A stretch of 36,594 nt of DNA from Nanobdellota archaeon (GTDB lineage: Archaea > Nanobdellota > Nanobdellia > UBA10117 > ARS21), in the NCBI GenBank assembly GCA_014240455.1, contig JAAZWY010000002.1, forward strand, positions 38,209 through 74,802, given 5' to 3'. The notes under the pieces were generated by a model that searched no databases, had not been told where the DNA came from, and saw nothing but the letters and a program-made list of their open reading frames with translations. Each line of letters opens with the position of its first letter. The first letter of the stretch is position 1. A program made the translations under genes and the position numbers. This document shows positions 1 through 36,540 of the stretch, one piece after another.

Positions 1-137
1 GTGAAGGAAGATCACGAAACTTTGGTAACGGACGGCCAAGAAATAATGATTCTAAGCCTAGTGAAGGAAGATCACGAAACTTTGGTAACGGACGGCCAAG
101 AAATAATGATTCTAAGCCTAGTGAAGGAAGATCACGA
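1..137. repeat. 60-bp in-frame tandem repeat: two perfect copies (1-60, 61-120) plus a partial third copy
   Basis: gtgaaggaagatcacgaaactttggtaacggacggccaagaaataatgattctaagccta occurs twice verbatim. Copy 3 starts gtgaaggaagatcacga and diverges. Confidence 0.95.
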
Positions 138-257
138 GGTCCAAGACGGTTTGGAAATAAGAAAGCTAGACCTTCAAGTTTTTCAAGACCTTCTAGAAAC
201 AAGAATCCAAAAGCAAGCAGGGTTGGTAGTACAATGCCAAATCCAAGATCTCGCTAA
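3..257 (+). CDS. C-terminal tail (5' truncated) of an Arg/Gly/Ser/Asn-rich protein, possibly the disordered basic tail of an RNA-binding protein or helicase
   Basis: Frame +3 translates EGRSRNFGNGRPRNNDSKPS x2, then EGRSRGPRRFGNKKARPSSFSRPSRNKNPKASRVGSTMPNPRSR*. This low-complexity RNA-binding-like composition is more plausible than the frame +1 ORF in the track. Confidence 0.6.
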   Translation, partial: EGRSRNFGNGRPRNNDSKPSEGRSRNFGNGRPRNNDSKPSEGRSRGPRRFGNKKARPSSFSRPSRNKNPKASRVGSTMPNPRSR

Positions 258-305
258 TATTTTCAGTAAAGAAATTGTTATAAACAATCTTTTACTACTA
301 TTTTT

Positions 306-479
306 ATGGTAGAATTATCATTTTATGACGTTAAAACAAAGTCAAAATTTACAACAAGCGACTTTGAAGTCAGAGAAAAGAATGGAAGATATTTCGCAGT
401 TTGTAAGTCTCCTGCAAAGGGTGCGACTCACGAATGCTGGAGAATTCTTTCCAAGAAACAAGCTGAAGAATTGAAATAA
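306..479 (+). CDS. Small hypothetical protein (57 aa), absent from the ORF track
   Basis: MVELSFYDVKTKSKFTTSDFEVREKNGRYFAVCKSPAKGATHECWRILSKKQAEELK*; good codon structure and starts just after the preceding gene. Confidence 0.6.
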   Translation: MVELSFYDVKTKSKFTTSDFEVREKNGRYFAVCKSPAKGATHECWRILSKKQAEELK

Positions 480-542
480 TTCGGAAATATTTTGATTAAT
501 CGATACTTTAATATAGTGATATCTATATCGGGTTTTGTTAAA

Positions 543-1109
543 ATGGCAAGAGATAGATTTGATGAATATATTAGATTTCGAAGAGAAGTTTCAGAATTTA
601 TAAAGGAAACAGATCAAGTTATAGAAGATCTTGAAGAATTTCCTTATGGAAAGATTGCAAAGATAATTAATACTTGTTCTACACAAATTAGAGGACTTAC
701 AACTTCTGGTTCGGAACAAATGAGTCATAATGAGAAGCGAACACGAGCATCTGAATATCTTAATCGTGCAATGGAAAGAATCCTTGATGAAAATTATCTT
801 GGACTAACTTTTGCAGCTGATAGTGACAGTTTTGATTTGATGAATCGAATTTCTGGAAAATTGAGTGATACTCGAATGGAAAACGGTAAAATTACGGGTA
901 AATTAGTTGGTTATTCTAGGGACCTTGATAAATTAGAAAATTATATTGTAAAATCACAAGACTTGAACATTAATGTTGATTCAGATCTTGGTGACAATGA
1001 TAACAACTTAGCTAAAGTAGATCCTGTTAAAATTGAATTGAAATATGTTACGCAAGCCACTCCTGACTCTCCTTGTGAGAGTTGTGATGGAAAGTGTAAG
1101 GGAAGATAA
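543..1109 (+). CDS. Hypothetical helical protein with C-terminal CxxCxxxC
   Basis: ATG at 543 (MARDRFDEYIRF...). The track start at 492 is a TTG-type extension. C-terminus is CESCDGKCKGR. Confidence 0.6.
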   Translation: MARDRFDEYIRFRREVSEFIKETDQVIEDLEEFPYGKIAKIINTCSTQIRGLTTSGSEQMSHNEKRTRASEYLNRAMERILDENYLGLTFAADSDSFDLMNRISGKLSDTRMENGKITGKLVGYSRDLDKLENYIVKSQDLNINVDSDLGDNDNNLAKVDPVKIELKYVTQATPDSPCESCDGKCKGR

Positions 1110-1545
1110 TCGCTGTACTCAACAAAGTTTTTTAATAAGTACTGCGTATAATTATTTTGTGGTAGAAATAGATTATCGAGAAAGGTTAAGAATTAATAGA
1201 AATAATATTCTTCCTAAAGCAGATGTTGTAATTAATTTAGTTACTTCTGAACCTCGTTCTCTTGGTCAGATAAAAAATGCACTTATTGTACACGGTCACA
1301 CTGACGGAGATAGTATTCGAAAATTGAAACCTTTACTTGATCGTCTTGAAGTTGTTAGATTTCCGTTTATGTGTTCTCCTGACAAGAAAGGAAATAAAAC
1401 AGGTTGGGGTTGGAGATATGGTTTATTGGATAAAATTGTAGAAGATTTTGCTAATTCTCCTGATGATTGTAATTATATTAATAGAACTTCATGGTACCTT
1501 AAACAAACACTCGGAGATCGATTTTATCGTTCTTTATATCAATGA
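1087..1545 (+). CDS. Hypothetical protein
   Basis: ORF overlaps the upstream stop and the downstream start (operon-like). Start uncertain (1045 or 1087). Confidence 0.5.
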   Translation: MESVREDNRCTQQSFLISTAYNYFVVEIDYRERLRINRNNILPKADVVINLVTSEPRSLGQIKNALIVHGHTDGDSIRKLKPLLDRLEVVRFPFMCSPDKKGNKTGWGWRYGLLDKIVEDFANSPDDCNYINRTSWYLKQTLGDRFYRSLYQ

Positions 1546-2204
1546 AAATATTAAACTGGAATACACACCCAAACAATAATAGAACTTCTCAAGCATTGGA
1601 GATGTTTGATGATTTATCTCCGGATATAATAACTTTACAGGAAGTTTCACCGGATTTTTTTGATGAAATTGAAGCTTATGCAAAGAGTAGATCCATGTAT
1701 CTTGATCAGACTCTTGATTGGGTTCGTCGTGGAATTCCTTATTACTTGGTAACTTTGCTGAAAGAACCTTCAGCAGAATCCAAAGGTTTACCTTATGAAA
1801 CTAGAAGAAATGGTCCGCTTTCCAGAGCACTTGGTTGGAAGGAAACTTTGAATTATTCGGTTTCTGAATTGGAATCTCAGACAATAATTAATGGGCATTT
1901 GGAACATCATGCCGGTCCAAGAACTCGGAGAAGGCAGTTGGATGAAATGTTAGATCATTTGGGGACGGGCACAAATATCTTAGGTATTGATTTGAATCAG
2001 TGGTTTCCTTTTGAGAAACGTAGTAATAGAAAACGCCTGCGCAAACATAATTTAACAGATATTGTTCGCGGGCGCACGATTAGTAATGGTTTGCAACTCG
2101 ACGGAATTATTGTTAGTGAGGATCTTGCTCAAAGAGAATATGATTTTGAGAAGCAAGATAGACATGGATCAGATCATTATCCTCTTTTTGTTGAGTTTTA
2201 TTAA
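1542..2204 (+). CDS. Endonuclease/exonuclease/phosphatase (EEP) family protein
   Basis: MKILNWNTH, IITLQEV, INGHLEHHAGPRTRRRQ, GIDLNQ and GSDHYPLFVEF match the EEP metal/phosphate motif order. Confidence 0.8.
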   Translation: MKILNWNTHPNNNRTSQALEMFDDLSPDIITLQEVSPDFFDEIEAYAKSRSMYLDQTLDWVRRGIPYYLVTLLKEPSAESKGLPYETRRNGPLSRALGWKETLNYSVSELESQTIINGHLEHHAGPRTRRRQLDEMLDHLGTGTNILGIDLNQWFPFEKRSNRKRLRKHNLTDIVRGRTISNGLQLDGIIVSEDLAQREYDFEKQDRHGSDHYPLFVEFY

Positions 2205-2258
2205 TATATTATTACTGCTAAGTGAAACGTTTATAATCGTTAAATCCGGTTACTGGTT

Positions 2259-2702
2259 ATGGTTCAGAATGATGCTGATAGACTAATAAATTATAAAACA
2301 TTGGCTGATGCGATTGTTAGATTAGTGGGTATGGCTCCAGAAGAATTTCCTGCAGCAGAAAGCATGGCAGATCATCTTCTTGGTTTTTTTGGTTATCAAG
2401 ATAGAGTTATTGATAATATGCTAGAACCTACTGATAGAAATATGTTTTATCAATTTCAAGATTGGGGACTTCTTAAAACTATAAGTGAAGAAACCACGTT
2501 ATGGGATGGTAGAGAGTGGCGGATTCATTATTGGTTGCTTAACACTGATAAAATATTAAATTGGACTCCTCCTGAAGAACCCGATGTAGATCCTGAAACT
2601 GTTAATATTTATGAAAGTCTTTCTCCTGCAGACTGGGGAATTGAAACATATGATGACGATGATTCCTGGCTTCCTAGAAAACGTGAATTTGATGAATATT
2701 AG
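2259..2702 (+). CDS. Conserved archaeal hypothetical protein (possibly DUF6015-like)
   Basis: LLGFFGYQDRVIDNMLEPTDRNMFYQFQDWGLLKTISEETTLWDGREWRIHYWLL resembles a recurrent archaeal uncharacterised family; very acidic tail. Confidence 0.55.
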   Translation: MVQNDADRLINYKTLADAIVRLVGMAPEEFPAAESMADHLLGFFGYQDRVIDNMLEPTDRNMFYQFQDWGLLKTISEETTLWDGREWRIHYWLLNTDKILNWTPPEEPDVDPETVNIYESLSPADWGIETYDDDDSWLPRKREFDEY

Positions 2703-2754
2703 ACATTCGACAAATTGAATAAAGAATTATAAATCAAGTTAGTAGAGTATTTTT

Positions 2755-4839
2755 GTGGAAGTGTTAGAACTATTTAAATCATATTTAGAAATCCTGCGTG
2801 AGCATCATGCGTCTATAAATTCTGGTCGAAGGAGTTATGGTGAAGTTTCTAATGTTGAAGATTTTGGAAATTATTTGATTGTTGGAATTAAACTAATTGA
2901 TAGAAAGATTAAGTTTCAATCTTCTGAACGAGTTTTGGTAGATGATGGTGATGCAATTGTTGAACATTATCGAAAAGGTAAGTATTATTTTAGAGTTCGA
3001 CCAGATGTTGATTTTTCTCAAGGTTCAAAAGTTTTAGTTAGTTCAACTTCAGATTTAGTTTTTTTAGTTGATAATATGTTGAAGAATCTTGAGGAAGTTT
3101 CTAATTCTAAAGAATACTCTAATTTTGTTAAAAATCTTTATTCTGGAAAAAGTAATGAATCTTGGCAGATTAAAAAAGTTAGTAAACTTGTTGGGAAAGG
3201 TTTTACTGAAAGTCAGAGTGACGTTATTTCAACTGCATTGAGTCTATTGGATTTAGAAAAAGGAATTGTTCCGGTGGAAGGTCCAGGTGGTTCAGGAAAA
3301 ACTGAATGCATTTCGGAGATTTGTAAGCAAGCGATTAAATTGAAGAAGCGTGTTTTGGTTTGTTCTGCTACAAATTTGGCAATAGATAATGTCTTGAGTA
3401 AACTTCTGGATGAAGACGGTGTTTTGAGAATTGGTTCTGATACTTCAATTGAACGTCCTGAAGTAAAAAAGTTTTCACTGAAGAACAAATTAGGAAAGAA
3501 ATTTGATTATGATGCAGTTGTAAAAGAATCTCTAATCATTGGTTCAACAATTGATTCTGTTGGAATTCATTTGAAGCATGAAGAATTTGATTTAGTTATT
3601 ATTGATGAAGCATCTACTGTTGAACTTTCTAAGCTTTTGATTGCTTTGTTGAAAAGTAAGCGTGTTTTGATTTGTGGAGACACTCAACAATTAAGTCAAT
3701 TTATTGATCGGAAGATTTTGAATAAATTAAGTGCTATAATTCCAGAAGAAGAACTTATGACTTTACATAAATCGCCGTTTGAGATGATTTCTAAACAATG
3801 GAATTCTTCTGAAAAGACTTTGTACTTGCGAGATAATTTCAGGAATTCTAAGAAAGTTTTTGAATTCATTAATGATAATTTTTATGAGGGTCGAATGTTG
3901 TTTAAGTCTGAACGAGAATTTAAGGGAACCAAGGCTAAATCTCTTGTTGAGATTGCGAGTGCTAATGAGATAACTTGGATTGTCCCTCATAATTCGGATT
4001 TGGAATTAGACAATCGGGGAATATTTAATCCTGTAAAATTCTCAAGCGGTTTTAGAAATTCATATTTTAATTATGGTAATTTGATTTTGATTGTCACAAT
4101 GTTGAAGGAATTATTGAAAACTTATTCTCCGAAAGAGATTGGAATTATATCTCCGTTCAACGCTCAGGTTTCTTTGATACGTGAGTTTATGATTCGATTT
4201 CCAGAGTATATTCTTGGACGCAAATACAAGAATGAGTTAGAGAAAACCAAACTTGGATTTTATTTGTTGAATAGCTTGAACATTAATACTATCAATAAAT
4301 TTCAAGGTCAAGAAAGAGATGCAATAATTTTTGATTTTACTAGTAATGCAGATTTTCTTTTTAGAGATCATAAGAAATTAAACGTTGTTCTTGGTCGTTC
4401 AAAGAAGCAGATTCTTTTAGTTGGTCTTCCTCCTCGAAGTCCGGTTTATCAGAATCTATTTGAGGCTTCTACAACTTATGGTGATATTGATTTGGCAGAA
4501 TATTCTTTGGCTTTTACTATGACTGATGAAGATGTTGCTGAATTTAAACGCGTGCGTGATTTGGTTTTATCCATTAAGGACTCTGACTTTTCACCGCGAG
4601 ATATTGAGGAACACTTGAAGAAAGAGCTTGTAAACCAGGTAGTTGAGAAATACAAGAAGGATGTTGCTGTTTTTGGACTAAGTAACTCGATTAATGATGT
4701 AGTTTCTGACACCTTGCGTGAGTTTTTTTCCATGGATATTGTTGATGATTTAACGTATGATCAATTGGAAAATGAAATTGATTTGAAAGTCAAAGAAATT
4801 ATTCATCAGAAAAAGCAGGGTCCTCTCTTTGGATTTTAA
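2755..4839 (+). CDS. Superfamily 1 (UPF1/IGHMBP2/Dna2-like) helicase
   Basis: GPGGSGKTE (Walker A), LVIIDEAS (II), LICGDTQQL (III), RDNFRNS (IV), INKFQGQERDAIIFDF (V), VVLGRSKKQILLVG (VI). GTG start. Confidence 0.85.
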   Translation: MEVLELFKSYLEILREHHASINSGRRSYGEVSNVEDFGNYLIVGIKLIDRKIKFQSSERVLVDDGDAIVEHYRKGKYYFRVRPDVDFSQGSKVLVSSTSDLVFLVDNMLKNLEEVSNSKEYSNFVKNLYSGKSNESWQIKKVSKLVGKGFTESQSDVISTALSLLDLEKGIVPVEGPGGSGKTECISEICKQAIKLKKRVLVCSATNLAIDNVLSKLLDEDGVLRIGSDTSIERPEVKKFSLKNKLGKKFDYDAVVKESLIIGSTIDSVGIHLKHEEFDLVIIDEASTVELSKLLIALLKSKRVLICGDTQQLSQFIDRKILNKLSAIIPEEELMTLHKSPFEMISKQWNSSEKTLYLRDNFRNSKKVFEFINDNFYEGRMLFKSEREFKGTKAKSLVEIASANEITWIVPHNSDLELDNRGIFNPVKFSSGFRNSYFNYGNLILIVTMLKELLKTYSPKEIGIISPFNAQVSLIREFMIRFPEYILGRKYKNELEKTKLGFYLLNSLNINTINKFQGQERDAIIFDFTSNADFLFRDHKKLNVVLGRSKKQILLVGLPPRSPVYQNLFEASTTYGDIDLAEYSLAFTMTDEDVAEFKRVRDLVLSIKDSDFSPRDIEEHLKKELVNQVVEKYKKDVAVFGLSNSINDVVSDTLREFFSMDIVDDLTYDQLENEIDLKVKEIIHQKKQGPLFGF

Positions 4840-4848
4840 AAATATAAA

Positions 4849-4864
4849 TGCCTCTTTCGAGGCA
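4849..4864 (+). terminator. Hairpin after the helicase gene, between convergent genes
   Basis: TGCCTC-TTTC-GAGGCA, perfect 6-bp stem. Confidence 0.5.
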
Positions 4865-4879
4865 TCGTTTATACCGAGA

Positions 4880-5053
4880 TTATAAATCTCGTGACTGAAC
4901 TGTCTTTCGTCCGTTTGCTTGTGCTCTGGTTACTGCATCTTTTACCATAGCAGAAACTCTTTCGCTAAGTGCGTCAGAGAAATTTCCAGCACAGTTGCAT
5001 CCGGAATCTCGAACAGCTTGTCTAACTGCGTTTTGTACAACTAATCTTGCCAT
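4880..5053 (-). CDS. Minimal (57 aa) histone-fold protein, absent from the ORF track
   Basis: Reverse strand: MARLVVQNAVRQAVRDSGCNCAGNFSDALSERVSAMVKDAVTRAQANGRKTVQSRDL*. Contains the helix alpha2 + A-x-A-N-G-R-K-T-V-x-x-x-D-L signature of archaeal and FtF/bacterial-type histones. Confidence 0.75.
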   Translation of the reverse strand: MARLVVQNAVRQAVRDSGCNCAGNFSDALSERVSAMVKDAVTRAQANGRKTVQSRDL

Positions 5054-5167
5054 AAAACATGGTATAGGTGCTGATTTAAAAGCTTTTTGAGTATGAGGCT
5101 TGAGAGTGTATTTCAGGAGGTTTCAGAGCGATAAGCTTTAAAAGAGATGTAGGGAATGATATTTTAT

Positions 5168-5251
5168 GCTGGAGTTCCAGAGCGGTCAAATGGGCTGGAC
5201 TTAAGATCCAGTGGCTTAGTGCCTTCGCAGGTTCGAATCCTGCCTCCAGCA
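5168..5251 (+). tRNA. tRNA-Leu (TAA anticodon)
   Basis: GCTGGAG/CTCCAGC acceptor, CTGGA-CTTAAGA-TCCAG anticodon arm, variable arm, GGTTCGAATCC T arm. Confidence 0.95.
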
Positions 5252-5280
5252 GTATAGACTTAGTTTGTTTAATAGAGTGT

Positions 5281-5299
5281 ATTAGAGATGTTTAAGTGA
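5281..5299. repeat. Copy 1 of ATTAGA(A)GATGTTTAAGTGA(TTA) repeat
   Basis: attagagatgtttaagtga; further copies at 5323-5345 and 5779-5800. Confidence 0.85.
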
Positions 5300-5322
5300 G
5301 AAGTGTAATAAGAGAAGTTATT

Positions 5323-5345
5323 ATTAGAAGATGTTTAAGTGATTA
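5323..5345. repeat. Copy 2 of the repeat; includes the stop codon of the 5343..5741 ORF
   Basis: attagaagatgtttaagtgatta. Confidence 0.85.
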
Positions 5346-5741
5346 ATATTCTACTTTGAGTATTTTTTTCTGTTTACTCCAGCCTTTCTGTTGTGAGGAA
5401 TATAAAGCTAAATCCTTTATTAATCCAATTAAATAGTCGGGTATTGGTTTAAGTCCTGACATTCCGTTTACCATTTCTAACGCCTTAGTTGAAGAAATTA
5501 ATACACCTGATTTGATTTCTTTGTCTTCCTTTAGATATTTCTTTAATTCATTAGATACAGGTATCTCGTAAATAAGAGTTGGATATTTCTTCTTCCATTT
5601 CTCAAAACTAATTTTTTCACCCCATTCTCCTGCTTCTTTATCTTCATGTGACAGATATAATGCCTCTAAGTTTCGGTCAGGTAATAAGGTTTTTTTAATA
5701 CTAACCTTTATCAAATTCTCTTCTTTTTCTTTCAAAACCAT
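5343..5741 (-). CDS. Hypothetical protein (132 aa)
   Basis: Lys/Glu-rich ORF with a leaderless-type upstream module shared with the next ORF. Confidence 0.65.
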   Translation of the reverse strand: MVLKEKEENLIKVSIKKTLLPDRNLEALYLSHEDKEAGEWGEKISFEKWKKKYPTLIYEIPVSNELKKYLKEDKEIKSGVLISSTKALEMVNGMSGLKPIPDYLIGLIKDLALYSSQQKGWSKQKKILKVEY

Positions 5742-5760
5742 AACAAATTTAGAACTCTGA

Positions 5761-5777
5761 TATTTATCAAGGTTTTG
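5761..5777 (-). promoter_or_regulatory. Duplicated promoter-like module (copy A)
   Basis: CAAAACCTTGATAAATA on the minus strand, 19 nt before an ATG; identical to copy B at 5952-5968. Confidence 0.6.
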
Positions 5778-5778
5778 A

Positions 5779-5800
5779 ATTAGAGATGTTTAAGTGATTA
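5779..5800. repeat. Copy 3 of the repeat; includes the stop codon of the 44-aa ORF
   Basis: attagagatgtttaagtgatta. Confidence 0.85.
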
Positions 5801-5932
5801 TTTTATTTTCCTAATATTATTTAATGCGACCTTTAGAACTTCCATTATTTTTATTTTATTTTCTTCATTTACATTTTTCTTTTCTATAATAGCGTTGAGG
5901 AGATTTAACAATTTTACAATATTTTTGTCCAT
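5798..5932 (-). CDS. Small hypothetical protein (44 aa), absent from the ORF track
   Basis: MDKNIVKLLNLLNAIIEKKNVNEENKIKIMEVLKVALNNIRKIK*; same promoter module and spacing as the neighbouring ORF. Confidence 0.5.
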   Translation of the reverse strand: MDKNIVKLLNLLNAIIEKKNVNEENKIKIMEVLKVALNNIRKIK

Positions 5933-5951
5933 AACAAGTTTAGTAAAAGGT

Positions 5952-5968
5952 TATTTATCAAGGTTTTG
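5952..5968 (-). promoter_or_regulatory. Duplicated promoter-like module (copy B)
   Basis: CAAAACCTTGATAAATA, 19 nt before ATG at 5932. Confidence 0.6.
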
Positions 5969-5970
5969 TA

Positions 5971-6168
5971 TTACTCAGAACTCTCTTCTCGAGTTCCGTC
6001 TTTGTTATACTTGTAAACTTTGCCTTCTTCTTCATCTTTTGTGTTGCGATGAGCTCCGTCACAATAAGGCATATTCTTAGAAATACCACATTGACAGATC
6101 CATTTGTCACCGTCTTTTGTTTCAATCTTGAGCGGTCCTTTATCGGACATAATTACAATTCGTGCCAT
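5971..6168 (-). CDS. CDGSH-type iron-sulfur domain protein
   Basis: WICQCGISKNMPYCDGAH, i.e. the CxCx...CDGxH cluster-binding motif. Confidence 0.9.
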   Translation of the reverse strand: MARIVIMSDKGPLKIETKDGDKWICQCGISKNMPYCDGAHRNTKDEEEGKVYKYNKDGTREESSE

Positions 6169-6251
6169 AGTATTATTAATAGTAAAAAGATAAAAGGATA
6201 ACTATCTTGTGAGGGAGCAAACTTAATTAAGTTCAAGCGTTTCATAGTTTT

Positions 6252-6614
6252 ATGAACTATAAAGAACTTTCTCGAGATTTGTTGGCGTTTGGAAGTCCGA
6301 TATTTTATCTTTTGGTTTTTGCGAGAGCACTTGTTGGTCCTTATCCGTTGTTTACTCTACAATTAATTGTTGCAGGAATATTGATATTTTTGGGTGCAGC
6401 AATCTTTAGAGAATTGATTGATTGGTATGTGGTTCGTGCCGGAATCTTGGCTTGGTTAACAACTCTGTTTTATGCTCACGACGGATTTACTTTGTTTGTA
6501 TTAGCAATTTTTACAGGAATCGTTTTGTCGGCATACCATCTTGAGAAGAAACTTGGTACGATAATCTGGGCAGTTGTTTCTGTGCTAGTTATTGGATTGA
6601 TTTCAGTAACATAA
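6252..6614 (+). CDS. Hypothetical integral membrane protein
   Basis: Several hydrophobic segments (LLVFARALVGPYPLFTLQLIVAGILIFLGAAI and others). Confidence 0.65.
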   Translation: MNYKELSRDLLAFGSPIFYLLVFARALVGPYPLFTLQLIVAGILIFLGAAIFRELIDWYVVRAGILAWLTTLFYAHDGFTLFVLAIFTGIVLSAYHLEKKLGTIIWAVVSVLVIGLISVT

Positions 6615-6640
6615 ATAAAGTCTTATTGATTTATAATTCT

Positions 6641-7042
6641 ATGAGTTTAATGGTTGCTATTTTGGTGGTTATGGGAATACTTACTTTGATTGTATCTTTA
6701 GCTAGCGTTGGAATTGTTTCAAAACAGCCAGACCGGAGATTGTGGAGATATATGGACTCACGAGGTTTAATTAAATTCGAGAACTACAATATTATGACTA
6801 CTGTTGAGTATGTTCGACTTCGAGAAGATGCTATGAAAAAGGGTAGAACTTGGAGTAATATTGTTGAGGGTGTTGCAGTTATTGGAACTGCCGAATCTGC
6901 GCGCAATAAAGTTAAGTTCTTAGGTAAGAATTCTAGACTTCTTTGGAGAGGATTACATTCCCGTAAGTTTGAAGGACGAAGAATCATGCTTGCTGAGGCT
7001 GAGAAGATTATTTCTGAAGAAAAAGGTAAACGGCATAATTAG
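6641..7042 (+). CDS. Hypothetical protein with N-terminal TM segment
   Basis: MSLMVAILVVMGILTLIVSLASVGIV followed by a basic cytosolic domain; ATG at 6641 preferred over 6626. Confidence 0.6.
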   Translation: MSLMVAILVVMGILTLIVSLASVGIVSKQPDRRLWRYMDSRGLIKFENYNIMTTVEYVRLREDAMKKGRTWSNIVEGVAVIGTAESARNKVKFLGKNSRLLWRGLHSRKFEGRRIMLAEAEKIISEEKGKRHN

Positions 7043-7085
7043 GCCTTTCGGCACCTTTTTAAATTAAATTTAAGAATTTTGGATT

Positions 7086-7253
7086 ATGGTAAAGCAAGAG
7101 AATGGCTACCACGTATGCGATGTCTGTAAATACAGATACGCAGATAATGAGCATGCTTTGACATGTGAAGATAACTGTAGAGCGGGAACTTTTGACCCTG
7201 AATTGGAATCTTATGGAATTCCTCCGGGTGAAGAAGCAGTTGCACAGGAATAG
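7086..7253 (+). CDS. Small zinc-finger-like protein (55 aa), absent from the ORF track
   Basis: MVKQENGYHVCDVCKYRYADNEHALTCEDNCRAGTFDPELESYGIPPGEEAVAQE*; CxxC...C...C pattern seen in archaeal small Zn proteins. Confidence 0.7.
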   Translation: MVKQENGYHVCDVCKYRYADNEHALTCEDNCRAGTFDPELESYGIPPGEEAVAQE

Positions 7254-7276
7254 TTTTTTAAATTCTCGTACCTAGA

Positions 7277-7636
7277 ATGGTTATGGCTAAAGCTAAGAAT
7301 GAAACAAGATTGAGACCTCGATATAGTTCTCTTATATTAGTATTAGTTATTGTACTGGGCTTCTTCTTATTTGAAGCAAATTCTTACAATTCTGATGCTA
7401 CCGGATTTCATGTAATAAATCCTCTTGCAAATCCTACTGAGATTTTTATATTTGAGCGGTCTGTTGATCTTGTTAAAGTTGATGCAGTGACTTGGATCCC
7501 TGATCAAAAATACACAGTAGATGAACACCGTTATTGTATTGCTGATTGTCAGGCCTTTGCAAATGAAAATGGGTTCGAAGTTATTCGATCACACTCTCGC
7601 ACTTGGGGAGAGTGTCTTTGTGAGGTTGCGCTTTGA
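7277..7636 (+). CDS. Hypothetical protein with N-terminal TM/signal anchor and Cys-rich C-terminus
   Basis: LILVLVIVLGFFLF; C-terminal CIADC...CLCEV. Confidence 0.6.
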   Translation: MVMAKAKNETRLRPRYSSLILVLVIVLGFFLFEANSYNSDATGFHVINPLANPTEIFIFERSVDLVKVDAVTWIPDQKYTVDEHRYCIADCQAFANENGFEVIRSHSRTWGECLCEVAL

Positions 7637-8037
7637 GAAAACCTAAATCTATGAGTGAACTTGTTTATCATACTCGTAGAAAGGATGAGTTCGGAACTGT
7701 TCGAGTTTGGGTTTTCAAGGAGAATTGTACTGAATGTGGCAAGGTTAAGATGGGAAAACCTGTTAATCCTAAAACTGGGAAAGTTAAATCACGATCAAAA
7801 GAATATGTTTGTTCTGAATGCGACCATAGTGTTGAGAAAGAAGCATATGAGGATTCATTGACTGCAAGTATTGAATATACTTGTCCTGAAGGTCATTCTG
7901 GTGAAATTGAAATTCCTTTTGAGCGGAGAAAGCTTACTATTAAAAATTTGAATACTGGGAAAAATAAAAGAAAACCGGGCGTTTCATTTAATTGTAAAAC
8001 TTGTGATTTTGAAATTAAAGTTGTTAAGTTGAAGTAG
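7633..8037 (+). CDS. Zinc-ribbon-rich hypothetical protein
   Basis: CTECGK, CSECDH, CPEGH and CKTC motifs. Confidence 0.65.
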   Translation: MRKPKSMSELVYHTRRKDEFGTVRVWVFKENCTECGKVKMGKPVNPKTGKVKSRSKEYVCSECDHSVEKEAYEDSLTASIEYTCPEGHSGEIEIPFERRKLTIKNLNTGKNKRKPGVSFNCKTCDFEIKVVKLK

Positions 8038-8244
8038 AATCTTCAATGCGTTTTTATTACCGTTCTTGGCTTCGTCTTTCCAATATTTGACAAGACGCTG
8101 TTCCGTTTTCTCTGTATTATAGTTGTCCTTTATCTTCATTTCTTCTCCGAGGAGAGACATGAAACACACTAAGATATTGACACATGTCTTACTTTATATC
8201 AATATCCACTTTAATACACTCCATTATAGAAACCAGTTAAGGAA

Positions 8245-8318
8245 TGCTCGAGAAGAGATTTGAACTCTTGACCTCTGCATTACCAATGCAGCGCTCTACC
8301 ATACTGAGCTACCCAAGC
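8245..8318 (-). tRNA. tRNA-Thr (GGT anticodon)
   Basis: Reverse complement GCTTGGGTAGCTCAGTATGGTAGAGC...CATTGGTAATG...GAGTTCAAATCTCTTCTCGAGCA. Confidence 0.93.
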
Positions 8319-8416
8319 ATGAGTTCTGGTGTTTTGGTTTGTTTTTAAGAATTGTTATTTCATAATTTATCGACATATTTTTAAACCGTATAGTCAATCA
8401 GATATTTACAGACTGC

Positions 8417-8491
8417 GGGCCTGTAGCTCAGTCTGGTTAGAGCACGAGGCTTTTAACCTCGGTGTCGCGGGTTCAAATCCTGTCAGGCCCG
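8417..8491 (+). tRNA. tRNA-Lys (TTT anticodon)
   Basis: GGGCCTGTAGCTCAGTCTGGTTAGAGC, GAGG-CTTTTAA-CCTC, GGGTTCAAATCC. Confidence 0.95.
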
Positions 8492-8529
8492 TATAATAAT
8501 TATTTTAAGCTTGTATTTTTTATTTCTTT

Positions 8530-9300
8530 ATGCGAGATAAGTTTCTTGATGTTGTTAGATTGATGAAGTTTCATAAGAAACGTGATAAGTTTTCTTTGAA
8601 TTTTTTGAAGAACTATTTATCGGTTGAATATTATCGAAAGGTTTCTCGGAGAGTTAAGCAAGGAAAATCTTCTGTTGAAATTAAACGAATGGGTTATTCT
8701 TTTTTGATATCTGGTCGAGATTTATTACCGCGCATTTATTCTTCAGGGAAGCTTGACAAGAAGTTTAACAAATTAGTTGAGAAGGAATTCTACGCTGAGA
8801 AGTATAAGCAGTTTTCAGGAAATTCTTGGTTAGTGCTACCTGAATTTATTGGTCCTAATGTTCTTGTTGAAAAGAGAATTAAATCCTTGTTGGCGTTGGT
8901 TTTATTTGCTCCAGATTTCAAGTTGAATATTATTGATGATTCTGGAGATGTTAAACCTTTAGTAAATTTTGTAAAGAGTCTTGGCTCAGTTAGGGCCAAG
9001 ACTTCTAAGAAAACTATCAAGCGTAGCGATCTAAATATTATTGAGAAAAATGTTCGATTGGGAAAGTTTAGGGATATTGCAAATCGTGCTGGGAAAAAAG
9101 TTAAAATTGGTGAGGGCGATAAGTTATTCTTGAAAAGATATATTCGTGATGCTCGTAAAATTAAGGTTGAAATCTCTGATAAACTTTTGAAAGAGGTATC
9201 TTCTGATTTGATTCCGTTAGTTAAGGCTTCAGCACAGATGGAACTGAGAAAAGAAGTTAGTTTAGTTGATGTTGAAAGAATTAGAGAATTGAAATTATGA
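8530..9300 (+). CDS. Putative degenerate MCM/AAA+-like protein lacking a Walker A motif
   Basis: LPEFIGPNVLVEKRIKSLLALVLFAPDFKLNIIDDSGDVKPLVNFVKSLGS resembles the MCM 'P.I.GHE.VK.AL.L.LFG...ILL.GDPGTAKS.LL..V' region. LFLKRYIRDARKIKVEISDKLLKEVSSDLIPLVKASAQMELRKEVSLVDVERI resembles the MCM C-terminal lid. Confidence 0.5.
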   Translation: MRDKFLDVVRLMKFHKKRDKFSLNFLKNYLSVEYYRKVSRRVKQGKSSVEIKRMGYSFLISGRDLLPRIYSSGKLDKKFNKLVEKEFYAEKYKQFSGNSWLVLPEFIGPNVLVEKRIKSLLALVLFAPDFKLNIIDDSGDVKPLVNFVKSLGSVRAKTSKKTIKRSDLNIIEKNVRLGKFRDIANRAGKKVKIGEGDKLFLKRYIRDARKIKVEISDKLLKEVSSDLIPLVKASAQMELRKEVSLVDVERIRELKL

Positions 9301-9347
9301 TTAAGTAAAGCTTTTATTTTATTGGATTGGATTGGAGAACTAATGTT

Positions 9348-9719
9348 ATGAGTAATGAATTGATTAGTGAAGTGCGTTATGTTGATATACGTAGGCGAGC
9401 TTATTGGAAAAAGTCAGTAAGACGGTATCAGGAAGAACAAAGTCTGGAAGATGCTTTTATGGATGAAGAAGAATTTACTAGATTGGAACATATAGTTACT
9501 TCTAGAAAAAATGTTCTTTCTGCAGTTCAAGATTTGGCAAATCACGGATTCATTAGTGTTCCGAGTAAAATAAATATGCGTAGAGACTATTTTAGGGCAA
9601 AAGATACTTTGACTGCTGCAGGAATTCTTACTAACGGTCGTTCTACAAGGCTATCTGACAAAGGTCGGACTTTTTTATTGGAATATGGGCGGAGAAATTA
9701 TGATTCTGTCGAGGCATAA
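9348..9719 (+). CDS. Hypothetical protein, possible winged-helix fold
   Basis: VTSRKNVLSAVQDLANHGFISVPS...AAGILTNGRSTRLSDKGRTFLLEYGR; start reassigned to ATG 9348. Confidence 0.5.
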   Translation: MSNELISEVRYVDIRRRAYWKKSVRRYQEEQSLEDAFMDEEEFTRLEHIVTSRKNVLSAVQDLANHGFISVPSKINMRRDYFRAKDTLTAAGILTNGRSTRLSDKGRTFLLEYGRRNYDSVEA

Positions 9720-9750
9720 GTGTTTTATAGAATATTAGTATTTGTTAATT

Positions 9751-9969
9751 ATGGCTTTGAGTATTGAAGCAATTATCTTTTACTTCTTGGTTATAGATAG
9801 TGTTGCTGGAAACCTAATTGTTTGGTTTTCTCCGAAACTTTTGAAATGGTATACGAATACTTGGAAGAAATTCTCTAGAGAATTTCCTGCAACTAAAGGC
9901 TGGATGGCTTTCTATCTTATACTGGTACTCTGGATTGGATATAGCTTGAATCGTTTAGGAATTGTGTAG
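9751..9969 (+). CDS. Small membrane protein
   Basis: MALSIEAIIFYFLVIDSVAGNLIVWF...WMAFYLILVLWIGYSL. Confidence 0.55.
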   Translation: MALSIEAIIFYFLVIDSVAGNLIVWFSPKLLKWYTNTWKKFSREFPATKGWMAFYLILVLWIGYSLNRLGIV

Positions 9970-10003
9970 AAAAGATTTTATACAATATTCGTATTTGTTA
10001 TCT

Positions 10004-10201
10004 ATGGTAATATCACAAGTTAAAGCTGAAAAGGCTGCATTAGAGTTAGGTCTTGGTGATGATTTTATTAAGTGGTTAAACAATAAATTGTCCTATCGGA
10101 TCTTTATGGGTCGAATAACTGCTAAGCGTAAACGTGGCAGTCAAACAATTCAAAGACAAAGAGCTAATGAATTGGAAGAATTTGTAACAAATAAAAGATA
10201 A
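10004..10201 (+). CDS. Small basic hypothetical protein
   Basis: MVISQVKAEKAALELGLGDDFIKWLNNKLSYRIFMGRITAKRKRGS...; ends just before the next GTG ORF. Confidence 0.5.
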   Translation: MVISQVKAEKAALELGLGDDFIKWLNNKLSYRIFMGRITAKRKRGSQTIQRQRANELEEFVTNKR

Positions 10202-10202
10202 T

Positions 10203-10436
10203 GTGGCAACATATCGTGAATGTAAAGATGCATTGGTTAAACTTAGAGATAGTTTTGTAGCTTCTAAGTCTGTAGCAGAAAGACAGGCACTTCTTAATAC
10301 TGCAATTTCTGATCCTGATTTGAAAGATTGTAAGGCTCTTCAGCGATGGGTGGCTTGGGCATTTGAAAATATTGATTGGAAACTTGTAAAGAAACAAAAA
10401 AAGCGTTCTGGATTTTTTTCAATATTTAAAGAATGA
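10203..10436 (+). CDS. Small hypothetical protein (GTG start)
   Basis: ORF translation-coupled with the upstream ORF. Confidence 0.5.
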   Translation: MATYRECKDALVKLRDSFVASKSVAERQALLNTAISDPDLKDCKALQRWVAWAFENIDWKLVKKQKKRSGFFSIFKE

Positions 10437-10437
10437 A

Positions 10438-10511
10438 TGCACCCAGAGGGATTTGAACCCGCGGCCCCCTGCTTACAAGGCAGGTGCTCTACCAGACTGA
10501 GCTATGGATGC
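10438..10511 (-). tRNA. tRNA-Thr (TGT anticodon)
   Basis: GCATCCATAGCTCAGTCTGGTAGAGC...CCTTGTAAG...GGGTTCAAATCCCTCTGGGTGCA. Confidence 0.93.
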
Positions 10512-10554
10512 ATGAAGTTTGGTTTTGTTTTTGCTTTTTAAGAGTTTCGCAAAG

Positions 10555-10628
10555 TGGCGAGAGGGGGATTTGAACCCCCGACTTTCCGCTCATGAAACGG
10601 ACGCTCTGCCATACTGAGCTACCTCGCC
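10555..10628 (-). tRNA. tRNA with CAT anticodon (elongator Met or Ile2)
   Basis: GGCGAGGTAGCTCAGTATGGCAGAGC...TCCGT-TTCATGA-GCGGA...GGGGGTTCAAATCCCCC. Confidence 0.92.
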
Positions 10629-10709
10629 AATTTATCTCCCTCATTTGAGTTTATAAATATAACGCTTCAAGTAGGATAGCCTTATATAATTATTTCAGCT
10701 AAGGTTAGA

Positions 10710-11306
10710 ATGGTAAAACAGATTAAATTGAATTATGCTCTTGGAGATTTAGAACCGTATATTGACAAAGAAACAATGAATATACATTATAATAAACATC
10801 ATGCTGCTTATACTAATAAGACTACTGTGATTTTGGATGAATTGAAAATTCGTAGTAATAATCCAAAAGTTGTATTCAAACGAGCATCTAAGAATGCGAG
10901 TCTTAGAAACAATGGTGGTGGCTGGTGGAATCACAATTTCTTTTTTGAAGCCTTGAATAAACCTGCTTCAAATAAAATTTCAGCTGAATTTGAAGAGGTT
11001 ATTTCTGAAAACTTTGGATCGTATGATAAATTTGTTGAGGAATTTTCAAACGCAGCTGCAACTCAGTTTGGCTCCGGCTGGGCTTGGCTCGGAAAGAAAA
11101 AAGATGGTTCTTTAGAGATTTATTCTACTTCAAACCAGGACAATTGTTTCATGGATGTAAATAAAATCTCCTCTATTCCAATTTTATGTTTAGATGTTTG
11201 GGAACATGCATATTATTTGAAGTATCAGAATCGTCGACCAGAATATGTTAAGAACTTCTACAACGTAATTGATTGGTCTGTTGTTGAGGAACGATATAAT
11301 GCATAA
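10710..11306 (+). CDS. sodA: Fe/Mn superoxide dismutase
   Basis: NIHYNKHHAAYTNK, WNHNFFFEAL, FGSGWAWL and DVWEHAYYLKYQNRRPEYVKNFYNVIDW are all SOD family motifs. Confidence 0.93.
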   Translation: MVKQIKLNYALGDLEPYIDKETMNIHYNKHHAAYTNKTTVILDELKIRSNNPKVVFKRASKNASLRNNGGGWWNHNFFFEALNKPASNKISAEFEEVISENFGSYDKFVEEFSNAAATQFGSGWAWLGKKKDGSLEIYSTSNQDNCFMDVNKISSIPILCLDVWEHAYYLKYQNRRPEYVKNFYNVIDWSVVEERYNA

Positions 11307-11403
11307 GAAATGTTTGATTTGTGGTTGTGGAGATCATAAAGTAATTGGTTGTTCAAAGCACAAAGCTAAGAACTGTGGTTGTTTTAAGAAGTCAAAGAAA
11401 TAG
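11299..11403 (+). CDS. 34-aa Cys/His-rich putative metal-binding microprotein overlapping the SOD stop
   Basis: MHKKCLICGCGDHKVIGCSKHKAKNCGCFKKSKK*; 6 Cys and 3 His. ATG lies inside the last codons of SOD. Confidence 0.55.
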   Translation: MHKKCLICGCGDHKVIGCSKHKAKNCGCFKKSKK

Positions 11404-11433
11404 TTTTTTATACTCGGAATTGGGGTCAAAATT

Positions 11434-11841
11434 ATGGTAAGAGATTGGAAAGATAGTTATTTCTCAGTTGATGAGCGAGAGCTAGAAATTATTGACTTTA
11501 ATCCCTTAGAAGACAGATTACCTGATGGATTAATGGAGTTTGAATCAGGCCTATATGGTGCTTGGCCAATTTATGATAATAGTAATATTACTTGGGATTT
11601 TGAACCTGTATCTGGTGAAACAAATGTTATGCCTATGGAACTTGAGGATATAGATGCATTTGATTTTAGATTGTGGTTGGATAATAAACCGGAGAAATAT
11701 CGGATCGGTATCTTGTCAAGATGTGGTGATGATGTTTATTTATTCATGAGTATGCCTCTTGAAGCTAATGGAGGAGTTTATACTTCTGCAGAACATATAA
11801 ATCAATTTCTTAATATGTCTAGACAATTAAACTCTGTCTAA
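11434..11841 (+). CDS. Acidic hypothetical protein
   Basis: ORF with preceding TATA-like tttttatac. Confidence 0.55.
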   Translation: MVRDWKDSYFSVDERELEIIDFNPLEDRLPDGLMEFESGLYGAWPIYDNSNITWDFEPVSGETNVMPMELEDIDAFDFRLWLDNKPEKYRIGILSRCGDDVYLFMSMPLEANGGVYTSAEHINQFLNMSRQLNSV

Positions 11842-11875
11842 ATAAAGCTTATATATTTCTGAGCATAGTGTTACT

Positions 11876-12151
11876 ATGGTACATAACCTTAGAAAATTAG
11901 TTACTCAAATTAATGAGGATTTTGATAAATATAGAAGCTTGGCTGATCCTGGTCGGAAGTTGACATTCAAAGGTCAGCTTTCTGGAAAGATTCAAGAAGC
12001 TAGACGAATGGTTGCAGATATTCAGACTCGAGGTGGTGGAATTCCTGAGAAGTTTGGTGATTTGATTTCTACGAGCGAAATTAAAGAAATAAATGCTAAA
12101 TTGAATTCTGTTGAAAATAGTTTGAAGAAGGATAAATTAGGTAGGCAATGA
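11876..12151 (+). CDS. Hypothetical protein
   Basis: 4-nt ATGA overlap with the following ORF. Confidence 0.55.
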   Translation: MVHNLRKLVTQINEDFDKYRSLADPGRKLTFKGQLSGKIQEARRMVADIQTRGGGIPEKFGDLISTSEIKEINAKLNSVENSLKKDKLGRQ

Positions 12152-12474
12152 GTCAAATAATACAGGAAACTGAGATTGTTAAAGATAGTATGAGGGTAAA
12201 AAATCTAAATACTTTATTTAACCAACTTGGATCAAAAGAGTTTTACGGATTCAAATTTAATCGTGTTACTGACGATCGAGAATTCGAGAGTGTTGAGGTT
12301 AAGCCTATTTCTGAATTTAAAGCAAAGAATGCAGAAGATTTGATTTCTAAAATGGAAGATACGGATTTTACATATTTTGGGACGATGGATCAAATCAAAA
12401 ACAAGTATCGATTGAGAGTTTACAATATTGTTAATCGTATAGAATTAATTGAATTCTTTAAACAACTAGTTTAA
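12148..12474 (+). CDS. Hypothetical protein
   Basis: Translation-coupled with the upstream ORF. Confidence 0.55.
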   Translation: MSQIIQETEIVKDSMRVKNLNTLFNQLGSKEFYGFKFNRVTDDREFESVEVKPISEFKAKNAEDLISKMEDTDFTYFGTMDQIKNKYRLRVYNIVNRIELIEFFKQLV

Positions 12475-12549
12475 TGGACGGGCCGAGATTCGAACTCGGG
12501 GCCTCTCCGCTGCCAGCGAAGCGCTCTGACCGGACTGAGCTAACCGCCC
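12475..12549 (-). tRNA. tRNA-Ala (GGC anticodon)
   Basis: GGGCGGTTAGCTCAGTCCGGTCAGAGC, loop CTGGCAG, T-arm CCGAGTTCGAATCTCGG; G3:U70 present. Confidence 0.93.
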
Positions 12550-12622
12550 TTGAATTCCGGTTTAATTTTTAGTTTAAGAAGTTTTTGATAAAGTTTAAAT
12601 TGTTTGACTGCTTCGTAAAATT

Positions 12623-12811
12623 ATGAAAGCAAAACAATTAATGCGATTAAACGCCGCACTGTTTACACTTGTATTTGTGCTACACGGATTAAGAATATTA
12701 AATGGTTGGGAAGCGAACGTTTCAACTTGGGCAGTTCCAATGTGGTTGAGCTGGGTTGTAGTGGTTCTTGTAGGATATTTAGGTTGGAATAATTGTAATT
12801 TAAGTAAATAA
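12623..12811 (+). CDS. Small membrane protein (2 TM)
   Basis: LNAALFTLVFVLHGLRILNGW...WLSWVVVVLVGYLGW. Confidence 0.55.
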   Translation: MKAKQLMRLNAALFTLVFVLHGLRILNGWEANVSTWAVPMWLSWVVVVLVGYLGWNNCNLSK

Positions 12812-12812
12812 G

Positions 12813-12887
12813 TGGCCCGACCAAGATTCGAACTTGGGATCTTCCCCACGTCAAGGGGACGTCATAACCAGGCTAGACCATCGGACC
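12813..12887 (-). tRNA. tRNA-Val (GAC anticodon)
   Basis: GGTCCGATGGTCTAGCCTGGTTATGAC, TCCCC-TTGACGT-GGGGA, CAAGTTCGAATCTTG. Confidence 0.93.
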
Positions 12888-13196
12888 TTATTCTAGAAGT
12901 TGAATTTCTAAGTTAATATCACTTGGAATTGGTACTCTAAGAACTAAGTGTAATGCTCTTTCATCAGCTGCAAGATCAATCATTCTCTTGTGGATTCTCA
13001 TTTCGTAGTTTTCCCAAGAAGCTTTACCTTCTCCTTGTGGAGATTTTCTTACAGGTACTTTAAGAGTTTTAGTTGGAATCATAATTGGACCTGCGAATTT
13101 TGTTTTTGTTTTTGTTGCAATATCCTTGATTTGATTGATAACTTCGTTTAGTTGATTCAAATCAGTTCCGTACAGTTTTATTCTCGCTGTTGGCAT
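12888..13196 (-). CDS. rps10: 30S ribosomal protein S10 (uS10)
   Basis: ARIKLYGTDLNQLNEV...FAGPIMIPTKTLKVPVRKSPQGEGKASWENYEMRIHKRMIDL. Confidence 0.95.
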   Translation of the reverse strand: MPTARIKLYGTDLNQLNEVINQIKDIATKTKTKFAGPIMIPTKTLKVPVRKSPQGEGKASWENYEMRIHKRMIDLAADERALHLVLRVPIPSDINLEIQLLE

Positions 13197-13241
13197 TGTA
13201 CAATGATTTGAGTATGTTGTTTTAAAAGAGTTTTGGTTGAC

Positions 13242-13772
13242 TTAGATGACTTTCTCAACTTCTCTAAAAATAGCCTTTATTGAGGGTTCTGCGTTGAGTT
13301 TATGGACGATCTGAGCACCATAATGTTTTAGGAGGGGTTTAGTCTCTGTTTTATACACTTCAAAACGATGATTGATTACTTCTTTTGTATCATCTGCCCG
13401 ACCTTGTCCTCTCTTCATAAGCCGTTCCTTGAATACTGAATTTCTACCCGTAAATGCTATGACTTTAATTACTTCAATCTTATTTTTGATGAGTTTTGCT
13501 TGAGTTATATTTCTTGGAAATCCATCAAGAACTAGAATTTTTTTGTTGGATTTAATATAATTAAGAGTTATTTGGACTGCTAGTTTTGGTGGTATAAAAT
13601 TGCCTTTGTTAATTAATGCGAATACTTTCTTTCCAAGAGTTGAGTTTTTGTTTAATTTTCTTAGAATATCTCCAGTTGATACGTGTTTGTATCCGAACTT
13701 CTTGGCAATCAGTTTAGCCTGAGTTCCTTTGCCTGATCCTGGCGGTCCAACAACTAAAATAGCTTTTTGCAT
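13242..13772 (-). CDS. adk: Adenylate kinase
   Basis: ILVVGPPGSGKGTQAKLIAKKFGYKHVSTGDILR, LDGFPRN. Confidence 0.92.
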   Translation of the reverse strand: MQKAILVVGPPGSGKGTQAKLIAKKFGYKHVSTGDILRKLNKNSTLGKKVFALINKGNFIPPKLAVQITLNYIKSNKKILVLDGFPRNITQAKLIKNKIEVIKVIAFTGRNSVFKERLMKRGQGRADDTKEVINHRFEVYKTETKPLLKHYGAQIVHKLNAEPSIKAIFREVEKVI

Positions 13773-13819
13773 ATAGATAGAACACTCAAGTAGTATAAAA
13801 AAATTTAGAAAAAGTATTA

Positions 13820-13837
13820 GAGGCTCCGAAGAGCCTC
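13820..13837 (-). terminator. UUCG-capped hairpin plus U-tract downstream of the EF-1A gene
   Basis: Minus strand GAGGCTC-TTCG-GAGCCTC, then TAATACTTTTTCTAAATTTTTTT. Confidence 0.75.
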
Positions 13838-13848
13838 ATAAATTATAC

Positions 13849-15111
13849 TTATTTTTTCAAGTCGATACAGACTCCAGCTGCAACTGTTCTACCCATGTCT
13901 CGGATAGCAACTTTTGCTAATTGTGGGAAGTCTGAGTTCTTCTCAATACAAGTTGGTCTTGTTGGAACACAAACAATTTCCGCAACGTCTCCGTTTCGAA
14001 GTAAGTCTGGGTTTTCCTCAAGAGTTTCTCCTGTTTTAGGATTGATTTTCTTCAAAATCTTTGTAACTCTACAAGATACTTGCGATGTATTAATGTGGAA
14101 TACCGGAGTATATCCAATTGTTAATACACTTGGGTGGTTCAGTACAACAATCTTTGCAGTAAACTCTTTAGCTACTGTTGGTGGATTGTCTGCTGGACCT
14201 AGAACGTCTCCTCGTTTCATATCGCCTTTTCCAAGACCTCGAATAGAGATTCCGACATTGTCACCTGGACCTGCACTTTGCATTTGTTCGTGGTGCATTT
14301 CAATTGTTTTTAATTCTCCTGATTTACCAGAAGGCATTGAAACAATCTTTTGTCCTAGCTTCATGTCTCCAGTTTCAATTCTTCCGACTGGAACTGTTCC
14401 AATTCCTGTGATGGTATAAACATCTTGAATTGGCATTCTCAAAGCAAGGTTTGTTGGCTTCTCTGGTGGTTTCAATTTGTTAAGAGATTCAAGTAAAGTT
14501 GGTCCTGAGTACCAGGACATTTCGCTTGATTTATCCTTAATATTGTCTCCTTTCAGAGCAGCGATTGGGACAAATTCTATCTCATCAGCTTTCCAACCAT
14601 AAGTTGTGATAAGCTTTTTGACATCTGATACTGCTGTATCATATTTGTCCTGAGCATAGCTAACCATATCCATCTTGTTAACTGCTACAATCAATTGTCC
14701 TACTCCAAGAGTTTTTGCTAGGAACGCGTGTTCCTTTGTTTGTTCTTGGACTGAATTGGTTGCTGCAACTACTAAGACAGCTGCGTCAGCTTGTGATGTA
14801 CCAGTGATCATATTCTTAATGAAGTCCTTGTGGCCTGGTGCATCGATAATTGTAAAATAGTATTTATCGGTTTCAAACTTCTTATAAGTTAAATCAATAG
14901 TAACTCCACGTTCACGCTCTTCTTTAACTGTGTCCATTACGTAAGCGAATTCGAATCCAGCTTTTCCTTTTTCAGCTGCTTCTTGCTTATATTTGGATAT
15001 AGTTTGTTCGTCTATAGCTCCTGATTCAAACAGGAGTCTTCCAACTGTTGTGGATTTACCATGGTCAACGTGACCAATGACAACTAAGTTCATGTGTGGT
15101 TTTTCTGCCAT
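13849..15111 (-). CDS. tuf: Elongation factor 1-alpha (aEF1A)
   Basis: [32 protein letters not shown]. Confidence 0.97.
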
Positions 15112-35462: not shown

Positions 35463-35553
35463 AGTCTCATTAATTTATGTTTACTTTTTAAAGGTATCGA
35501 TGTAAAACCGCATTACGTGAGTTAAGTGTTCGGTGTTTTACCTTTAAAGGGTA

Positions 35554-35636
35554 CGCCAAGAGTGGGATTTGAACCCACGACCCCCGAAGGGACAGGATTT
35601 CCAATCCTGCGCAATACCAGGCTATGCGACCTTGGC
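35554..35636 (-). tRNA. tRNA-Ser (GGA anticodon)
   Basis: GCCAAGGTCGCATAGCCTGG...CAGGA-TTGGAAA-TCCTG, long variable arm, GTGGGTTCAAATCCCAC. Confidence 0.94.
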
Positions 35637-36493: not shown

Positions 36494-36540
36494 AAAACTT
36501 AGAAGACTTAATAGTATATAAGTTTAGGTAATTGGTTGAA

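What the first reader, a model, noticed from the sequence alone, without database searches (positions are those of the whole stretch)
5281..5968. Duplicated gene cassette: two small ORFs with identical promoter module, spacing and stop-codon/3' module
On the minus strand, CAAAACCTTGATAAATA (5761-5777 and 5952-5968) lies exactly 19 nt before each ATG, and the spacer is partly conserved (AACAA[A/G]TTTAG on the plus strand). Each ORF (132 aa and 44 aa) ends in TAATCACTTAAACATCT, so the stop codon itself is part of the repeat. A third 3'-module copy at 5281-5299 follows next to tRNA-Leu. The two ORFs are not obviously homologous, so it looks like interchangeable payloads between constant ends. This recalls gene-cassette, toxin-antitoxin or small mobile-unit logic and sits beside a tRNA gene.
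Basis: partly seen in the sequence, partly recalled or inferred. Interest (0 to 1): 0.7.

Follow-up and report, generated by a model that had tools for sequence, protein, structure and literature searches.

The report
Archaeal gene cassettes with constant ends

Summary
The 5' module P (CAAAACCTTGATAAATA, 19 nt before ATG) is a leaderless BRE/TATA promoter. The 3' module T (TAATCACTTAAACATCT) supplies the stop codon. Within the window the modules frame ORFs of 132 and 44 aa with no detected homologues. Fused T-P junctions recur in two relatives (same genus, same family) and nowhere else convincing among 378 genomes of the class. At the orthologous locus (tRNA-Leu(TAA) to a shared gene block) three species keep the modules but carry different payloads: X,Y here; a,b in G001; an orphan 151-aa gene plus a distant b relative in G003. 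A second array in G001 (methyltransferase) lies at tRNA-Asn, and one in G003 (61-aa ORF, CDGSH) lies between two tRNA genes. One T-P unit without an ORF sits between fttA and rpS3ae. No attC-like fold, dif-like palindrome, integron integrase, or toxin-antitoxin or phage family match was found. Best reading: a clade-restricted gene-cassette array in tRNA-associated islands, with payloads exchanged by recombination at the T-P junction. The recombinase is unknown. Site-specific recombination at a CTAATTCAAAACCTT core is suggested by boundaries at tRNA-Asn and in a truncated gene, but not shown.

The parts
5167..5252 (+). tRNA-Leu(TAA), conserved anchor of the locus
   Evidence: ARAGORN; orthologous in G003 with its 3' end repeated beyond the array
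5281..5301 (-). T3: outermost 3' module copy (CACTTAAACATCT-CTAAT), no ORF in front of it
   Evidence: sequence; 5281-5347 is 95.5% identical to the end of G001 contig C35
5302..5328 (-). conserved spacer between T2 and T3 (about CTAATAATAACTTCTCTTATTACACTT)
   Evidence: kept in G001 C35 and C15
5329..5345 (-). T2: TAATCACTTAAACATCT, includes the stop codon of ORF Y
5343..5741 (-). payload ORF Y, 132 aa, no known family; codon usage typical of genes in the window
5742..5778 (-). P2: leaderless promoter module (BRE/TATA TCAAAACCTTGATAAATA plus 19-nt conserved spacer to ATG)
5784..5800 (-). T1: TAATCACTTAAACATCT, includes the stop codon of ORF X; fused to P2 through CTAAT
   Evidence: T-P junction model R1 68 bits
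5798..5932 (-). payload ORF X, 44 aa, orphan; coding evidence weak
5933..5973 (-). P1: promoter module of X, without a T in front; abuts the stop codon of the CDGSH gene
5971..6168 (-). CDGSH iron-sulphur protein gene (65 aa) next to the array; in the order found only here and in G003, where it carries a P module
6252..6614 (+). flanking membrane-protein gene, intact here, truncated by the array side in G001

Best explanation
This is a clade-restricted gene-cassette array in a tRNA-associated variable island of a DPANN-type archaeon. Each cassette is a self-expressed unit: a leaderless BRE/TATA promoter with an almost fixed start region (P), a small ORF, and a constant tail (T) that begins at the stop codon. 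Cassettes stand head to tail, so every internal boundary is the same T-CTAAT-P sequence. Payloads are gained, lost and swapped by recombination at that shared junction, while promoter and tail stay. Shown: the anatomy, its recurrence in relatives, different payloads at the orthologous locus, association with tRNA genes, and a T-P unit without payload. Inferred: that junctions are the crossover points, and that an integrase-like or microhomology process inserts cassettes at CTAATTCAAAACCTT-like sites, with homologous recombination between junctions reshuffling and homogenising them. No recombinase is identified.
For: Module copies in G001 and G003; R1 model hits of 31-68 bits only in G000, G001 and G003 among 378 class genomes; the pattern scan of 85,462 species genomes hit only the two records of those relatives. 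Orthologous locus with conserved flanks (80% nt in G001; tRNA-Leu, rub55 and orf134 in G003) but different payloads: T-s-T 95.5% and T-P 88-92% identical, whereas Y/X versus a/b show no detectable similarity. All ten P modules have exactly 19 nt to the ATG. CDGSH occurs in 2 of 18 genomes of the order, both times next to the modules, at different loci, with similarity ending at the ATG. Island signature at tRNA-Leu in G003. Empty T-P unit at G000:C11:167062-167107 and tandem T-P without ORF at L034:7020-7100. At tRNA-Asn, G000 and G001 are near-identical for 186 nt and diverge exactly at TCAAAACCTT.
Against: Only three metagenome-assembled genomes of one family carry it, and array sizes are one to a few cassettes. 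No circular cassette, no recombinase and no strain-level presence/absence was seen. P-only copies in front of a 37-aa gene and of CDGSH could be ordinary strong promoters. Payloads b and G003b are homologous, so not every exchange is to an unrelated gene. Some contigs end inside the modules.
Confidence: 0.6

Rival explanations
1. Regulon reading: P is a shared strong promoter and T a shared operator or 3' processing signal of ordinary, fast-evolving accessory genes. The modules are conserved by selection; nothing moves as a cassette.
For: P is in the same register as other leaderless promoters of the genome. Some P copies lack T (L034:10923, CDGSH in G003). The aIF2-beta gene has a similar native promoter.
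Against: T occurs only with the arrays plus one ORF-less site. T after the last gene of an array is followed by no promoter. An ORF-less T-P unit lies between convergent genes. Genes at the same position are unrelated, while the junction is 88-95% identical.
Confidence: 0.2
2. Local tandem duplication of one gene with its flanks, followed by rapid divergence of the coding part and gene conversion of the flanks.
For: a, b and G003b form one weakly similar family (b/G003b z about 11; a/b p about 0.01). The two G001 junctions are nearly identical to each other.
Against: Y, X, the 151-aa gene, the 61-aa gene and the methyltransferase show no similarity to that family or to each other. Arrays occur at several loci, and in G003 in the opposite orientation relative to tRNA-Leu.
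Confidence: 0.12
3. Integron-type cassette cluster without integrase (CALIN), as reported for some archaea.
For: Head-to-tail ORFs in one orientation with a constant boundary; archaeal integrons exist (PMC9668308).
Against: The T-P junction does not fold on either strand better than shuffles (z between -0.9 and 0.5; the T-s-T end -1.4 and -1.7); no integrase above an IntI cut-off; each cassette has its own promoter.
Confidence: 0.03
4. Toxin-antitoxin or small defence module.
For: Two small ORFs in tandem in an island beside a tRNA gene.
Against: No family hit in Pfam, NCBIfam, PHROGs or PADLOC; the pair X-Y is not conserved.
Confidence: 0.05

Closest known systems
Integron gene cassettes and CALINs, including archaeal ones (Ghaly et al. 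2022, PMC9668308)
   Same: Small mostly unknown genes head to tail, constant sequence at every gene boundary that reaches into the stop codon, variable content at a fixed locus.
   Different: No folded attC, no IntI or attI seen; every cassette has its own leaderless promoter; the constant sequence is a promoter plus tail.
tRNA-gene-associated integrative islands of archaea (integrated MGEs with tyrosine recombinases, e.g. PMC6563490 for Thaumarchaeota, seen as title and abstract only)
   Same: Arrays lie within 1 kb of tRNA genes; G003 has a duplicated tRNA-Leu 3' end; G000 has an integrase element at the tRNA-Asn where G001 has a cassette.
   Different: No integrase in the arrays; boundaries of single cassettes are at T-P, not at tRNA ends.
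Mobile promoters / MITE-like elements (from general knowledge; not studied in detail here)
   Same: A short promoter-bearing sequence recurs at several loci, once without a gene.
   Different: No terminal inverted repeats or target duplication seen; T and P frame genes rather than insert only upstream of them.

Membership tests
Integron / CALIN | Folded single-strand attC site between genes | tested here: not met
   Ten folds of junctions and array end, both strands, none clearly better than shuffles
Integron / CALIN | Integron integrase in the genome | tested here: inconclusive
   PF00589 search of G000-G003: one recombinase in each, plus a second (441 aa) in G000 that is far below the NCBIfam IntI cut-off. 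The MAGs are incomplete and the one-per-genome recombinase was not profiled; CALINs lack IntI anyway
Gene-cassette array (generic: variable genes between constant ends at a fixed locus) | Constant ends with different genes between | tested here: met
Gene-cassette array (generic: variable genes between constant ends at a fixed locus) | Demonstrated excision/insertion, empty versus filled site | tested here: inconclusive
   ORF-less T-P unit in G000 and tandem T-P in G003; no strain pair
tRNA-targeted integrative element | Direct repeat of the tRNA 3' end at both ends | tested here: inconclusive
   Met in G003; no repeat found in the window; contig broken in G001
tRNA-targeted integrative element | Integrase gene inside the element | tested here: not met
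   No tyrosine recombinase in the arrays
Toxin-antitoxin module | Conserved toxin and antitoxin families as a pair | tested here: not met
Xer/dif-type recombination site | Two 11-bp inverted arms around a 5-8 bp centre | tested here: not met
   Best arms no better than shuffles

The most novel reading that the evidence does not exclude
T-CTAAT-P is a compound double-strand recombination site (T as left arm, TCAAAACCTT as right arm) of an undescribed archaeal cassette system that carries its own promoter and stop codon, so that any captured ORF is expressed at once. Single cassettes insert at CTAATTCAAAACCTT-like host sites, as at tRNA-Asn and in the truncated membrane-protein gene of G001.
Probability: 0.22. 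Interest if true: 0.85.

Novelty: new variant of a known kind. Interest (0 to 1): 0.6.

Why it matters
DPANN-type archaea have very small genomes, and how they take up and express new genes is poorly known. A constant promoter-plus-stop frame that accepts different genes at a tRNA hotspot would be a gene-exchange route distinct from integrons, and it offers a sequence tag for pulling out the changing accessory genes of this lineage.

Tried and rejected
Own-genome search first suggested a purely local duplication; the DNA search in relatives overturned that. Homologues of Y were sought in the order, in genome contigs, viral contigs and plasmids: none convincing (one weak 38% match in G004, E 0.005, ignored). 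Viral-contig scans with modules and payloads gave nothing; seven T-like viral hits look like chance. Structure of Y: pLDDT 52, useless. Structure of b: pTM 0.65 but no PDB fold match. Profile comparison of Y with the b family: no match. R1 hits below about 30 bits in other genomes were treated as chance, including the one in G012 (26 bits). attC and dif hypotheses tested and rejected. The P-like promoter of aIF2-beta was considered as a further module and rejected as a native promoter.

Full report
The window is G000:C22:38209-74802 of a 464-kb, 92% complete archaeal assembly. Relatives carrying the same modules are G001 (same genus; its contig C35 has the length and content of JABIPN010000010.1, 'Candidatus Woesearchaeota archaeon' SI072_bin119) and G003 (same family; contig C11 has the length of JAAZYP010000001.1, 'Nanoarchaeota archaeon' bin62s). 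So this is a DPANN-type archaeon; the window's own species name is not known.

Check of the observation. Exact repeats of 17 nt or more in a region of this size and composition are rare by simulation (4 of 2000), and there are two. The 19-nt spacing is explained: upstream regions of 32 genes of the window show AA at -33/-32 and a TATA box at -28 to -22, the layout of leaderless archaeal promoters, and P fits this register exactly. T is not a general feature: the pattern ACTTAAACAT-N2-3-CTAAT occurs 11 times in G000-G003, all in arrays or the one ORF-less unit, and none with the reversed control.

Relatives. A search with the DNA around the finding hit the junctions repeatedly in G001 and G003. 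In G001 contig C35 (L032) the order is H gene (opposite strand), T-P, ORF a (130 aa), T-P, ORF b (145 aa), T-spacer-T, contig end. In G001 contig C15 (L033) it is H gene, T-spacer-T, P, methyltransferase (224 aa), tRNA-Asn. In G003 (L034) it is tRNA-Leu(TAA), about 0.9 kb, P, a 151-aa ORF, a T-P without ORF, T-P, a 128-aa relative of b, T. A second G003 site (L035) has a degenerate T, P, a 61-aa ORF, P, CDGSH, lying between tRNA-Thr and tRNA-Met. All ten P modules end 19 nt before ATG. In four of six ORFs followed by T the TAA of TAATCAC is the stop codon; b has a shifted TAA and the 151-aa ORF stops earlier (sequence).

Same locus, different genes. BLAST of window 1-14000 shows that C35 of G001 is collinear with window 6489-10646 at 79-84% and that its end matches T-spacer-T at 95.5%, while X, Y and CDGSH are replaced by a, b and an H gene. 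That C35 continues into tRNA-Leu is inferred, because the contig ends in T. G003 has tRNA-Leu, the array, then rub55 and orf134 homologues in the same order. Payload comparison against shuffles finds similarity only for b/G003b (z about 11) and weakly a/b; Y and X match nothing in protein comparisons (the one marginal DNA score, Y/X, p about 0.015 among ten comparisons, is not significant). Background identity between G000 and G001 is 79% in coding and 84% in alignable intergenic DNA. So the frame is conserved and the content is not. In G003 the array points away from tRNA-Leu, in G000 towards it.

Mobility hints. (i) In G003 14 nt at the tRNA-Leu 3' end recur exactly beyond the array; of 26 tRNAs on that contig it is the only one with such a repeat within 20 kb. 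(ii) The CDGSH gene exists in only 2 of 18 genomes of the order, both next to modules but at different loci; its similarity begins at the ATG. (iii) G000:C11:167062-167107 is a T-P unit with no ORF between the convergent fttA (beta-CASP) and rpS3ae genes; in G001, G002 and G003 other sequence follows fttA. It runs into the rpS3ae stop codon. (iv) At tRNA-Asn G000 and G001 are near-identical over 186 nt and part exactly at TCAAAACCTT, the start of the P core; G000 continues with a 441-aa tyrosine recombinase gene, G001 with the methyltransferase cassette. (v) In G001 the array side cuts the membrane-protein gene within a few bases of CTAATTCAAAAC. Points iv and v were noticed after the fact and are suggestive only. 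Two of the G003 sites lie within 1 kb of a tRNA 3' end, each expected for about 8% of random positions.

Distribution. A sequence model of the junction (R1) gave strong hits only in G000, G001 and G003 of 378 genomes of the class; the rest are near the noise. A pattern scan of one genome per species (85,462) hit only the two relatives. Viral contigs gave none convincing. G002, same family, has none but is 78% complete.

Mechanism. I favour gene cassettes exchanged at the T-P junction (0.6). Homologous recombination between junctions can explain swapping within an array; insertion at new sites with only 10-12 matching bases would need a site-specific or microhomology process. Candidate enzymes are unidentified: each of the four genomes has one tyrosine recombinase, and G000 has one more. 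The integron reading fails on folding, and no integron integrase was recognised. A pure regulon reading (0.2) explains P but not terminal and ORF-less T copies. Tandem duplication with fast divergence (0.12) fits a/b/G003b but not the other payloads. Payload functions are unknown except the methyltransferase and CDGSH; the 151-aa gene contains YHGSP near its start, which recalls ADP-ribosyltransferase-like proteins, but no profile or structure supports that.

Noticed in passing
window 35553-35607 and 36540-36594: Exact 55-nt repeat of the tRNA-Ser(gga) 3' part at the contig end; the length suggests an assembler k-mer overlap artefact rather than biology.
   Followed up: partly
window 1255-3806; G001 contig C25 (L011): 2552 nt 100% identical between this window and a small G001 contig although other orthologous contigs are about 80% identical; probably a stray contig of this species in that bin.
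   Followed up: partly
L111:7234-8713 (G000:C11:175233-176712): tRNA-Asn followed by a 441-aa tyrosine recombinase, an integrated element running off the contig end; best profile XerA but far below cut-off.
   Followed up: partly
L032:11298-11870 and L033:1-751: Two related proteins rich in GRKGG-type repeats, divergent from the arrays, with identical upstream regions and conserved C-termini; no Pfam, NCBIfam, PHROG or viral match.
   Followed up: partly
window 7984-8169; L034:5675-5803: Small 'GNKNA' protein overlapping orf134 here has a homologue directly beside tRNA-Leu in G003.
   Followed up: no
window 1-180: 60-nt in-frame coding repeats (two identical copies and a third partial one).
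   Followed up: no
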